Source: Anaerococcus sp. Marseille-P3625
GTDB taxonomy: Bacteria; Bacillota; Clostridia; Tissierellales; Peptoniphilaceae
DNA length: 64,000 nt
Reading direction: 5' to 3'
Assembly: GCF_900232825.1 (NCBI RefSeq)
Contig: NZ_OCTP01000011.1
Coordinates: forward strand, 124,001 to 188,000
Shown one piece after another: positions 16,626 through 24,979 of this stretch (the stretch's first letter is position 1; each line of letters starts with the position of its first letter). The notes under the pieces are model-generated. The model saw only the letters and a list, made by a program, of their open reading frames with translations, had not been told where the DNA came from and made no database searches. A program made the position numbers and the translations under genes.

Positions 16626-16702
16626 CGGGGTGTGGCGCAGCTTGGTAGCGCGCGTGTTTTGGGAACATGAGGCCGAAGGTTCGAATCCTTTCACCCCGAC
16701 CA
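16626..16702 (+). tRNA. tRNA-Pro (UGG)
   Basis: A 77-base cloverleaf with encoded CCA. The acceptor stem is CGGGGTG/CACCCCG, the T arm has GGTTCGAATCC and the anticodon loop TTTGGGA holds TGG. It has its own consensus promoter. Directly to its right the prophage begins, so its 3' end is the likely integration site. Confidence 0.97.
16673..16702. other. candidate prophage attachment core (3' end of tRNA-Pro)
   Basis: All genes to the left are chromosomal and all genes to the right are phage-like, and the junction falls at the T arm and acceptor end of this tRNA, a standard tyrosine-integrase target. The other att copy would be beyond the right edge and cannot be seen, so the exact core is unknown. 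Confidence 0.4.
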
Positions 16703-16725
16703 TATTAAATTTATTCATTCATATT

Positions 16726-21546: not shown

Positions 21547-21690
21547 TTATTCAACATAATCTTGACCAGTAATTATCTTAAATTCTTCTGGAGTAATTTG
21601 TCCCCAAGGTTGTTTTTTTGTTTTTACCAAAAATTTAAGCTCATCAAGTGTAATCCATTCATATTGCCATGCTAATTGTAAAAAATCCAT
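21547..21690 (-). CDS. XkdX family phage protein
   Basis: A 47-residue protein reading MDFLQLAWQYEWITLDELKF and ending ITPEEFKIITGQDYVE. This is the XkdX pattern (aromatic-rich start, TPEEFKEITG end) found between tail fibre and lysis genes in many Bacillota phages. Function unknown. Its ATG overlaps the stop of the preceding gene by one base (TAATGG), so translation is coupled. Confidence 0.85.
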   Translation of the reverse strand: MDFLQLAWQYEWITLDELKFLVKTKKQPWGQITPEEFKIITGQDYVE

Positions 21691-21911
21691 TATTTGCCCC
21701 CTTGTAGATCTAGAATTTCTTTTTCCATTTTTGCCATTTTTATCATATTCATAGCTGATTGTTTGCCTAAAGCTTCTATGACTTTCTCTTTTTCAGCAGC
21801 TTCTAATGTTAGTTTGGAAATTTGCTTTCCCATTGCCATAAAGCGTTTTTGTTCAGCTTCTTTTTTCTTGTTGATTCCTAGTATAGAATCTATTTTATGA
21901 AATACTGCCAT
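21690..21911 (-). CDS. small coiled-coil phage protein
   Basis: A 73-residue protein when started at the ATG at 21911 (MAVFHKIDSILGINKKKEAE), whose first base overlaps the stop of the DUF6273 gene; a longer in-frame start would run into that gene. Residues 15-70 are helical with heptad-like spacing. It sits between the variable-tip protein and XkdX and may be a small tail or chaperone protein. No family recognised. Confidence 0.6.
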   Translation of the reverse strand: MAVFHKIDSILGINKKKEAEQKRFMAMGKQISKLTLEAAEKEKVIEALGKQSAMNMIKMAKMEKEILDLQGGK

Positions 21912-23128
21912 TATTCGAAGTTTCCCCCTATTGATGAAATGTAACATTCTCCTATTGCTCCGTTTCTTTCTACACTTACTCTTATATTAAATCCCCAATT
22001 TGATGCTGTTTTTTGCTTATTTGATAAGAATATCTTCTTATTCCCAGCAGCTTTATCTGTCACATCTTCCCATGTAGGATTTGCATCACTACCATTGTTG
22101 CAAGCTTCTATTTTTAGTATCGCTTTTTCTGGTATTGATCCGACTAGATTTATTAGTGCCTTTGTTACCATAGCATCTGCCTGTAATGGCTTTTGGAGTT
22201 CAAAGAGTATTTTTGTTTCGTTCTTTCTAAAATTAAAGACTTTCTCTGCAACACCTCCTTCATTATCATCTGCGACTATTTTTATAGTATGATTGCCATT
22301 AAGTAATTTTTGATAGGCTAATCTTGACAAGCTAAAAGTATATGTTGATCCAGCGGTTGCTGTAAATTGCTTGGTTGATTTACCATCAAGATATTCATTG
22401 ACAGTAAGAGTTGGATTGTCTTGATCTGATACCTTGTAAGTAAATTCAAACTCTTTATTTTGTAGACCCATGTTAGCGCTTGTAGTAGTTTCAATGATTG
22501 GTATTCTATTCCAAGAAATAGTGTATGCACCGTCAGAGCCTTTATTATCATATATCAAGATTTCAGGTTTCAGATTACAAAGCGGACGGACACCAGAGGC
22601 GTTGTAGTAGTACTGGGCGTTAGCATTACCATCGGTGTCGACGGTGCGCAACAGATTTTCGGTGGATTTATAGAAAGTTCTAAGCCACCAAGCTTTATTG
22701 CTGTTATCAAAATCTTTGCCCATTCTACTGTTATTGTCGGTAAATAAGGGAAATCTATATCCTTCTTTTTCAGAACCGCTTTCTAACCCTACTTCTGTCA
22801 TCGAAACTAAAAACATTTTATCCGTAGCATTTCCAGATGCTGTGCTTATGCTAGTGTAGACAATATCATTTTTAAAATTAGAAGAAAAATTTTTCAACAA
22901 TCCATTATTATCATTAATCCACCTCCTAAGTTCTGAATCTTGGTACTTTATTGTAGAACTATCAAATTTCTTATCTAGTAAAACTCTCTCGCTTATGAGT
23001 GTTACCGTGTTATTCGGATAACCCCTGTGATTTTTGTCTGCTATTATCCATACTATGGTATGACCGTTGTATTTTGTATTTATATCCTTAATCTTTGCCC
23101 CTATTGGTAAATCACTTAATCTTTTCAA
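21911..23128 (-). CDS. DUF6273 domain phage tip protein with Ig-like C-terminus
   Basis: A 405-residue protein. Residues about 1-195 form a C-type-lectin-like DUF6273 domain: it begins LSDLPIGAKIKD, has SELRRWINDNNGLLKNFSSN and ends WWLRTFYKSTENLL, DTDGNANAQYYYNASGVRP and LKPEILIY. The rest is beta-rich with an Ig-like unit (SDQDNPTLTVNEYLDG) and a final domain of unknown type. Similar proteins are phage or cell-surface tips. It follows the fibre genes, so receptor or host-surface binding is the best guess. The codons of residues 160-190 are markedly GC-rich; see the separate entry. Confidence 0.75.
   Translation of the reverse strand: MKRLSDLPIGAKIKDINTKYNGHTIVWIIADKNHRGYPNNTVTLISERVLLDKKFDSSTIKYQDSELRRWINDNNGLLKNFSSNFKNDIVYTSISTASGNATDKMFLVSMTEVGLESGSEKEGYRFPLFTDNNSRMGKDFDNSNKAWWLRTFYKSTENLLRTVDTDGNANAQYYYNASGVRPLCNLKPEILIYDNKGSDGAYTISWNRIPIIETTTSANMGLQNKEFEFTYKVSDQDNPTLTVNEYLDGKSTKQFTATAGSTYTFSLSRLAYQKLLNGNHTIKIVADDNEGGVAEKVFNFRKNETKILFELQKPLQADAMVTKALINLVGSIPEKAILKIEACNNGSDANPTWEDVTDKAAGNKKIFLSNKQKTASNWGFNIRVSVERNGAIGECYISSIGGNFE
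22571..22650 (-). other. GC-rich hypervariable-type block inside the DUF6273 domain
   Basis: In these 80 bases 44 are G or C (55 percent), whereas flanking genes are visibly AT-rich. It encodes GNANAQYYYNASGVRPL, using codons AAC, TAC, GCC, GTC and CGT that neighbouring genes avoid. The row of NAC codons is what adenine-directed mutagenesis of AAC codons would give, and DUF6273 proteins often carry Asn-rich variable loops here. No template copy is seen in the window. Confidence 0.6.
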
Positions 23129-23176
23129 AGTTTATCACTTCCTTTTCCTATTTAATATTTTGTAAAATAGCATCTA

Positions 23177-23824
23177 CTAGCACTCCAACCTAGATAAATC
23201 TTCATTGAATACTCCGTTGGTAAATTTAATCCCATTTAAATCTTTAAAATTAATAGTAAATGGGTTGCCAGTTATATCTTCATAAAGTCCACTTTCAACC
23301 TGTTTAAGTCTTACCAATATATCTGATGAAATTATTCTTTCTACGTTGGTTATATTGTTCCACTTGGTCTTTTCAGCATCTGTTACTGTTCTGTGAGTTG
23401 GATCTTCTTTTAATTGAGAAAGACTTAGTTTTAGATCAATCTCATCTAAAAATCTTCCCCAACTTGACCATGTAACATTATCTAAACCTAGTCTAAAGTA
23501 AGTCTGCATATTTTTTGTAAGTAGACAAATCTGTATTGGATATCCACCACTTGAATCTTCCCAACCTTGCATAGTTATTAGTAGACAATATTGAGCATCA
23601 GTTTTGGTATGTAAGCCTAATGCTAGCGTCTTTTTAAATTCTTTTACTATCTCATAAGGGTGATTTTCTATATACCATTGAGGGCTTTCGTCTGTATCTT
23701 TAGTGTCGATAAATTTTGAACTTATTTCTAATTTTTCAAATTTATCTTTGTCGGCTTTCTTTTCGATAAGTCCTTTTATTTTACCTACAACCTGCTTTAA
23801 TCCTTCATAATCTAATAGTTTCAT
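23177..23824 (-). CDS. tail fibre protein
   Basis: A 215-residue protein beginning MKLLDYEGLKQVVGKIKGLI, a start that resembles the next fibre gene. It has a short coiled region, then a beta-rich part (SSGGYPIQICLLTKN, YFRLGLDNVTWSSWGRF) typical of receptor-binding pyocin-knob or fibre heads, and the tail-fibre motif HRTVTDAEKTKWN. It probably forms a trimeric fibre attached through the upstream baseplate proteins. The start is preceded by a weak ribosome site near the preceding stop. Confidence 0.7.
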   Translation of the reverse strand: MKLLDYEGLKQVVGKIKGLIEKKADKDKFEKLEISSKFIDTKDTDESPQWYIENHPYEIVKEFKKTLALGLHTKTDAQYCLLITMQGWEDSSGGYPIQICLLTKNMQTYFRLGLDNVTWSSWGRFLDEIDLKLSLSQLKEDPTHRTVTDAEKTKWNNITNVERIISSDILVRLKQVESGLYEDITGNPFTINFKDLNGIKFTNGVFNEDLSRLEC

Positions 23825-24454: not shown

Positions 24455-24979
24455 CTAGAACATCTTAGCTATATCTTCTTCTGTGATCCTAGCTACACTC
24501 ATTTTTCCAATTTTTTCCAACATCTCTTGCTTATCTGCTTCAGTAAAAAAGTCTATTCCAACTTTTGGCGTATAACCATCTTTGCTTATCATAAATGGAT
24601 TTGATATAAAAGTATCCTTGCCAATTGTACCAATTACTTTTCTTACTTGTAGATAAAATTCACCACTAGTTAGAACATAGTCTTTATTTATAATCTTTAT
24701 TTCACATTGCAAAATCCCCGGTTGACATAGAGTTCCATCTGTAAGCACTATTTTTAGTTGCTTATTATCTTCTGAAACTTGGCAATCTAGCTTTAAGGTC
24801 TTCATATCAGGCCTAAGCATAAGACAATAAATTTCCTCATAGTCTTTAATTTCTAAAATCCTTATCCCTTCAGTAAGATTGATATATAGAATATTAGTTT
24901 TGTTGTCATATTGTACAAAGCCTGTATAAAGTCCGTTGTTATTTTTCATATCTACTTTGATTTTATAAGCTTTTTCCAT
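24455..24979 (-). CDS. BppU-family baseplate upper protein
   Basis: A 174-residue protein with the N-terminal BppU immunoglobulin-like domain of phage baseplates (ILYINLTEGIRILEIKDYEE, LTDGTLCQPGILQCEIKI) and the characteristic linker TPKVGIDFFTEADKQEMLEK. BppU links receptor-binding proteins to the baseplate. The start follows a ribosome site overlapping the previous stop. The C-terminus is short compared with full-length BppU, with the fibre domain apparently on separate genes downstream. Confidence 0.8.
   Translation of the reverse strand: MEKAYKIKVDMKNNNGLYTGFVQYDNKTNILYINLTEGIRILEIKDYEEIYCLMLRPDMKTLKLDCQVSEDNKQLKIVLTDGTLCQPGILQCEIKIINKDYVLTSGEFYLQVRKVIGTIGKDTFISNPFMISKDGYTPKVGIDFFTEADKQEMLEKIGKMSVARITEEDIAKMF

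What the first reader, a model, noticed from the sequence alone, without database searches (positions are those of the whole stretch)
22571..22650. GC-rich Asn/Tyr-rich block in a DUF6273 tip protein, possible diversified receptor-binding site
Counting from the sequence, 44 of 80 bases are G or C, while neighbouring genes are strongly AT-rich. The block encodes NANAQYYYNASGVRP with AAC, TAC, TAC, TAC, AAC codons, which is what adenine-specific mutagenesis of AAC codons would give. DUF6273 domains have a C-type-lectin-like fold, the fold used by diversity-generating retroelement (DGR) targets. No reverse transcriptase or template repeat is in the window, so the mechanism could also be recombination with other DUF6273 genes.
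Basis: partly seen in the sequence, partly recalled or inferred. Interest (0 to 1): 0.75.

Follow-up and report, generated by a model that had tools for sequence, protein, structure and literature searches.

The report
Frozen hypervariable tip protein, mutator lost
A bacterial virus lodged in an Anaerococcus genome carries a receptor-binding protein whose relatives are rewritten by a built-in mutation machine; here the machine is gone, but the stretch that it seems to have written is still recognisable by its unusual codons.

Summary
The block is 44/80 G+C. It has the highest third-position C and GC3 of 17,628 25-codon windows in the 64-kb window, and amino-acid content does not explain this. 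The gene (21911-23128, minus) encodes a "tentaclin", a DUF6273 plus Ig-like phage receptor-binding protein, a family already known as a DGR target (PMC10743442). In the six phage relatives examined (of 25 found) and in two Anaerococcus prophages, the homologous block is the DGR variable repeat (VR), beside a reverse transcriptase and a template repeat that differs from it almost only at adenines. In those AT-rich Anaerococcus prophages the GC3-rich tract coincides with the VR. The window's own genome shows no DGR RT, no template repeat and no other DUF6273 gene, and the block is identical in all three tandem prophage copies. Best reading: a frozen VR whose DGR core was lost. RT-less relatives are scattered on the tree, so loss looks recurrent; some keep the codon footprint, others do not.

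The parts
21911..23128 (-). tentaclin-like receptor-binding protein, 405 aa: N-terminal DUF6273, then Ig-like region, C-terminal half matching PHROG 10993 (Hoc-like)
22568..23011 (-). DUF6273 domain (residues 40-187)
22583..22669 (-). 29-codon stretch ending at GVRP, aligned with the DGR variable repeat of relatives (orphan VR)
22598..22648 (-). core of the third-position-C island (C3 0.71)
   Evidence: 0 of 500 shuffles
23129..23176 (-). 48-nt gap where relatives carry Avd-like gene, TR and RT; no RT recognisable (weak match to the L085 RT-tail region only, 18 of 1000 shuffles as good)
23177..23824 (-). tail-fibre-like gene; its last 49 residues are 57% identical to the end of the fibre gene ahead of the DGR in G006
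21690..21947 (-). small downstream ORF, 51% identical to the ORF after the tentaclin in G001/G006
16687..16703 (+). 17-bp att-like core at the 3' end of tRNA-Pro (16626-16702), left edge of the tandem prophage array

Best explanation
The block is a former DGR variable repeat in a tentaclin, frozen because the DGR core (Avd-like gene, TR, RT) was lost from the fibre-tentaclin junction of this prophage or of its donor module. While a DGR is active, the VR is overwritten by cDNA copied from a TR rich in AAC codons, so the VR takes the TR's C-ending codons whatever the host composition; after loss, ordinary mutation should erase this slowly. Here the footprint is still strong, which suggests recent loss. 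Shown: homology to active-type VRs, the footprint, absence of a detectable RT and TR in the held genome, identity of the three copies. Inferred: that a TR wrote this very block, that loss was recent, and that the protein still binds a receptor with a fixed specificity.
For: Full-length alignment with six DGR target proteins, 32-41% identity. In these six (of 25 records found) the gene directly ahead is an RT (four matched by RVT_1; L031 and L034 by alignment). Mismatches between TR and VR lie at TR adenines: all in Toutatis, MT835569, nd12 and MT835552 (the last with one 3-nt gap), 16 of 17 in nd4, 17 of 19 in Lelie. Same genus: A. degeneri (G001) and A. lactolyticus (G006) have TR, RT and VR with 9 of 9 changes at A each, G001 also an Avd-like gene (weak matches). 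In the viral-contig copies of these prophages with the same VR peptides (L084, L086) the GC3 segments, codons 218-247 and 222-251, coincide with the VRs, 218-248 and 222-252. The best C3 segment falls inside the VR in 18 of 21 TR/VR loci with gene C3 <0.40 (21 of 29 overall). Decay series: L085, a prophage 82% identical to L084/L086 over 5 kb of tail genes and 77% over the tentaclin, keeps a 129-aa RT remnant and shows no TR; L122 has Avd-like gene, TR, RT and tentaclin, its sister L124 the tentaclin directly after the structural gene; G009 has the gene directly after the fibre gene and lacks the VR part. RT-less tentaclins need 8 changes on the tree, at least 7 by well-supported branches.
Against: No cognate TR exists to show A-specific change directly. 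Against the TRs of three same-length relatives (two identical in this stretch) the excess of mismatches at TR adenines is only borderline (codon positions 1-2: 11/22 vs 6/26, p 0.05; 12/21 vs 8/27, p 0.05; all positions p 0.10-0.15). The 48-nt junction has no convincing RT scar: 664 and 678 of 1000 shuffles match the G001/G006 tails as well. The window row has a long branch (0.88) and no well-supported nearest kin. Against same-gene usage of the same amino acids the C excess is modest in L084 and L086 (17 and 18 seen, 15.1 expected in each), and the GC3 segment of L084 is reached by 5 of 60 shuffles. The RT contrast of GC3 excess (p 0.011; full RT against none p 0.015) weakens to p 0.08 if loci with RT pieces are counted as RT-less.
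Confidence: 0.7

Rival explanations
1. The block was imported by homologous recombination from a DGR-bearing, higher-GC gut phage, whose variable repeat replaced the local one; this lineage may not itself have carried a DGR.
For: Among the 20 window proteins compared, the fibre end, tentaclin and next small ORF are like G001/G006 and the baseplate-side proteins gave no match there (40 kb of G001 and 39 kb of G006 compared), so modules move. The block keeps the register of the Toutatis/Lelie/MT835569 TRs.
Against: No donor found: 0 matches to two 24-base patterns from the block in viral contigs, and only short blastn matches in phages (best by E: 47 bases, 83%, E 2e-4) and plasmids (E 0.4 and worse). 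AT-rich Anaerococcus prophages with a full DGR have the same kind of tract.
Confidence: 0.22
2. The block is rewritten in trans by a DGR on another element in this or in co-infected cells.
For: DGRs with distant targets are on record (passages of PMC3521204).
Against: No DGR RT at E<=10 in a 99.89% complete genome; three copies identical in the block although adjacent copies differ elsewhere by 13 bases.
Confidence: 0.04
3. Only protein composition: Tyr/Asn-rich loops need such codons, with no special history.
For: The footprint rests on 23 NNY codons.
Against: Synonymous choice is shifted: 15 of 23 end in C, 5.5 expected from the same amino acids in the prophage, p 1e-5; RT-less L090, L119, L127 and L093 show no such shift.
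Confidence: 0.04

Closest known systems
Tentaclins (Baykov et al. 2023, PMC10743442; outline and parts 1-3 of 6 of the text read)
   Same: N-terminal DUF6273 followed by Ig-like domains; [quoted passage not shown] full-length alignment with nd4 and nd12 targets.
   Different: They report that each analysed genome (several picked at random from five groups) had the tentaclin inside a DGR cassette; here RT and TR are absent and no Avd was detected. This one is 405 aa; nd4 and nd12 are given as 569 and 579 aa.
Faecalibacterium phage DGRs (PMC11792537: passages and section 31 read; PMC5883640: passages read)
   Same: Lelie's targets contain DUF6273 with the VR at its C-terminal end (paper); the Toutatis target has DUF6273 too.
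   Different: Those have RT and TR; this one does not.
Inactivated DGRs (PMC3521204; passages read)
   Same: Loss of RT function with the target kept is on record.
   Different: The cases seen there keep TR/VR pairs with a broken RT; here RT and TR are both undetectable, and the VR is recognised by homology and codon footprint.

Membership tests
tentaclin | N-terminal DUF6273 domain | tested here: met
   PF19789 E 2e-24, residues 40-187
tentaclin | Ig-like region and conserved C-terminal domain | tested here: met
   PHROG 10993 residues 215-405, E 6e-84; alignment to nd4, nd12, Toutatis; Pfam Ig matches are below cut-off. The published seven-residue consensus was not checked.
tentaclin | C-type-lectin fold with surface beta-hairpin | not tested
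   structure prediction not available; reported for nd4/nd12 in PMC10743442
DGR cassette | DGR reverse transcriptase | tested here: not met
   0 matches at E<=10 in own genome; the same profile at E<=1e-15 hits 3 of 130 family genomes. The 7 RVT_1 hits form two groups of equal score and length; one of each was scanned and is over the group II intron maturase cut-off.
DGR cassette | template repeat | tested here: not met
   blastn at E<=10 gives the three copies and 11 short matches of 14-23 bases; none in the prophage pieces held
DGR cassette | accessory protein Avd | tested here: inconclusive
   no match with the G001 Avd-like protein, single query without positive control
DGR cassette | variable repeat in the target gene | tested here: met
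   homologous place and register, C3 island
DGR cassette | VR differs from TR only at TR adenines | tested here: inconclusive
   no own TR; against relatives' TRs borderline

The most novel reading that the evidence does not exclude
A tract of C-ending codons limited to the VR is a fossil and rough clock of lost DGRs. Phages repeatedly shed the mutator and keep one chosen receptor-binding variant, and such frozen VRs can be found in genomes that RT-based DGR searches pass over.
Probability: 0.4. Interest if true: 0.6.

Novelty: new variant of a known kind. Interest (0 to 1): 0.45.

Why it matters
A DGR search that starts from the reverse transcriptase would miss this gene. If VRs outlive their DGRs with a readable codon footprint, one can count how often phages freeze a hypervariable receptor, date the loss roughly, and study which variants were kept. 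In the Anaerococcus and Anaerococcus-like prophages seen here there are full DGRs (A. degeneri, A. lactolyticus), an RT remnant (L085), an orphan VR (window) and a gene without the VR part (G009).

Tried and rejected
Composition alone: rejected by same-amino-acid codon controls. Recombination among DUF6273 genes of this genome: no match besides the three copies. Group II intron RTs as DGR RT: one of each of the two groups exceeds the maturase cut-off. Junction scar of a lost RT: inconclusive. Codon identity at shared residues, block against rest of the gene, with 24 relatives: no consistent difference. Search for the prophage's own lineage by its 1143-aa protein and by the fibre gene in viral contigs: no relatives. 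Structure prediction: machine busy, then not open. PDB search with the DUF6273 profile: one strong hit, the N-terminal part of an IgA protease, 9qa6, E 7e-19; the one passage seen of PMC12402451 (on gut-bacterial IgA peptidases) calls DUF6273 a domain of unknown function, and a find for words beginning with 'lectin' in its main text gave none.

Rows dropped: of 25 phage records six were looked at. Three loci without a GxRP motif (L108, L128, L129) were left out of the codon counts, and loci with the same VR peptide counted once. Five partial loci (L096, L097, L100, L128, L129) and near-duplicates were left out of the tree. Of the six RT-fragment rows of the tree, L113 and L118 are cut by the contig end. 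Loci with an RT fragment counted as RT-bearing; one search gives the other ways of counting.

Correction: an earlier count said that L114 keeps the 3' end of RT; one search shows that the reading frame begins with the N-terminal part of RT and ends early.

Full report
What is there. The finding lies in gene 21911-23128 (minus strand, 405 aa), in the tail region of a prophage whose tandem array begins inside tRNA-Pro at 16687. The window is G000:C1:124001-188000 of an Anaerococcus genome: the same-genus genomes G001 and G006 have contigs of the lengths of A. degeneri DSM 29674 and A. lactolyticus ATCC 51172 contigs found with the same gene. The protein has an N-terminal DUF6273 domain and a C-terminal half matching PHROG 10993. 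It aligns over its length with the DUF6273 targets of nd4, nd12, Toutatis, Lelie and two gut contigs, 32-41% identity.

Is the block unusual? Yes. It has 44 of 80 G+C. Among 17,628 25-codon windows in 59 ORFs of the window it has the highest third-position C (0.56; next 0.40) and the highest GC3 (0.68; next 0.56). The excess is in C, not G: C3 0.52 against 0.13 in the rest of the gene, G3 0.14 against 0.12. The best C3 segment is 22598-22648 (0 of 500 shuffles). Amino-acid choice does not explain it: 15 of 23 NNY codons end in C, while the prophage's own usage predicts 5.5.

What the block is in relatives. A protein search found 25 phage records; six were examined. In each of the six the gene before the DUF6273 gene is a reverse transcriptase (so annotated in two; four matched by RVT_1; the two unannotated contigs by alignment). 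A template repeat lies ahead of it, and the matching variable repeat lies in the DUF6273 gene and reaches GVRP or its equivalent. Mismatches are at template adenines: all in four of six, 16 of 17 in nd4, 17 of 19 in Lelie. G001 and G006 in the same genus have TR, RT and VR with 9 of 9 changes at A each; the Avd-like protein of G001 was scanned (bAvd and DivGenRetAVD matches below the cut-offs). The window's block aligns with these variable repeats. The family is already described as tentaclins, DGR targets with the VR in a hairpin of a C-type-lectin domain (PMC10743442, parts 1-3 of 6 read).

Why it is GC-rich. In G001 and G006 the tentaclin gene is AT-rich outside the VR (GC3 0.38 and 0.35) and the VR is not (0.74 and 0.77). 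In the viral-contig copies with the same VR peptides (L084, L086) the maximal GC3 segment is codons 218-247 and 222-251; the VRs are 218-248 and 222-252. Shuffle support is strong in L086 (0 of 60) and weak in L084 (5 of 60). Across the survey the maximal C3 segment falls in the VR in 18 of 21 TR/VR loci with gene C3 below 0.40, and in 3 of 8 with higher C3. The likely cause is that the TR is rich in AAC, so its mutated copies give NNC codons, and its fixed codons are also C-rich; the VR inherits both at each rewriting. Among 21 distinct loci with gene GC3 below 0.6, the 15 with RT or a piece of it show a GC3 excess of +0.19 to +0.55; the six without show -0.04, -0.04, 0.00, -0.02, +0.13 and +0.51 (Mann-Whitney p 0.011, not corrected for kinship). 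Full RT (11) against none (6) gives p 0.015; with the four RT-piece loci counted as RT-less, p 0.08. Two of these four (L085, L114) fit recent loss, so this weakening is expected under the reading but does not prove it. The window shows +0.40 without RT.

Is the machine present? No sign of it. A profile of six DGR RTs finds nothing in the genome at E<=10; at E<=1e-15 it finds G001, G006 and one other of 130 family genomes. Seven RVT_1 matches form two sets of equal score; one of each is over the group II intron maturase cut-off. The block occurs in the three tandem prophage copies, identical in each, and otherwise only matches of 14-23 bases were found. Adjacent copies differ elsewhere by 13 bases in three clusters. 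No other DUF6273 gene was found in the genome.

How it most likely came about. In G001 the order is fibre, two small ORFs (the second Avd-like), TR, RT, tentaclin. In the window the fibre gene, which ends with the same conserved stretch (57% over 49 residues with G006), is followed after 48 nt by the tentaclin. L085 has the fibre gene, then a 129-aa RT remnant, then the tentaclin, with no TR detected; calling it Anaerococcus-like rests on its 82% identity to L084/L086. L097 (partial tentaclin) has the fibre gene directly before the tentaclin. L122 has a structural gene, an Avd-like gene (by position and size, not scanned), TR, RT and tentaclin; its sister L124 (75% identity in the tentaclin) has the tentaclin 2 nt after a structural gene with the same ending, and L125 and L126 hold the same junction. 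L114 is about 99% identical to L098 in the shared stretches but lacks most of the RT while keeping its TR. On a tree of 47 tentaclins (32 full RT, 6 RT piece, 9 none) the RT-less label needs 8 changes. The label is not clustered (204 of 500 shuffles as low), as repeated loss would give; repeated gain is not excluded by the count alone. Hence the most likely history is loss of the DGR core with the last VR kept.

Limits. The cognate template is unknown, so the adenine rule could not be tested on this block itself; with relatives' templates the result is borderline. Import of a VR from a DGR phage remains possible. The lectin fold and the binding function rest on the literature for relatives, not on tests here. 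Survey loci were found with patterns from five sequences, four of them DGR targets, so the share with RT (45 of 55, fragments and duplicates included; TR/VR pair in 38, all changes at A in 29 of these) is not an unbiased frequency, and pairs with under 80% of changes at A were not counted.

Literature. Searches for DUF6273, tentaclin, DGR with Faecalibacterium, DGR with loss, orphan, remnant or inactive terms, and DGR with Anaerococcus were seen as listings and starts of abstracts; none of these, nor the passages read, describes an orphan tentaclin VR or a codon footprint of a VR. Papers behind the listings were mostly not opened. Inactivated DGRs as such are known (PMC3521204). The site type is therefore known, and the DGR-free state with a codon footprint is, as far as seen, a new variant.

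Noticed in passing
G000:C1:140687-329226 (window from 16687): Three tandem copies of a 62,841-bp prophage in tRNA-Pro with a 17-bp att-like repeat at the junctions looked at; adjacent copies differ by only 13 bases in three clusters, five of them within window 24620-24674 in a 174-aa tail gene.
   Followed up: partly
G009:C1:942260 and 978972: Another Anaerococcus genome also carries its tentaclin-like gene twice, 36,712 bp apart, possibly a tandem prophage too.
   Followed up: no
L098 and L114: Two nearly identical phage contigs; L114 keeps the TR but lost most of the RT, and its VR differs from its TR at 18 adenines.
   Followed up: partly
G000 contigs C1, C10, C11: Two groups of group II intron-type RTs in four and three copies of equal score.
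   Followed up: partly
PDB 9qa6, N-terminal part: The only strong PDB sequence match of the DUF6273 profile is an IgA protease.
   Followed up: partly
G050:C3:340550-341554 (L048): A genome of another genus of the family has a DGR-type RT with a nearby repeat pair, 86 of 89 bases identical, all three differences at A in one copy.
   Followed up: no
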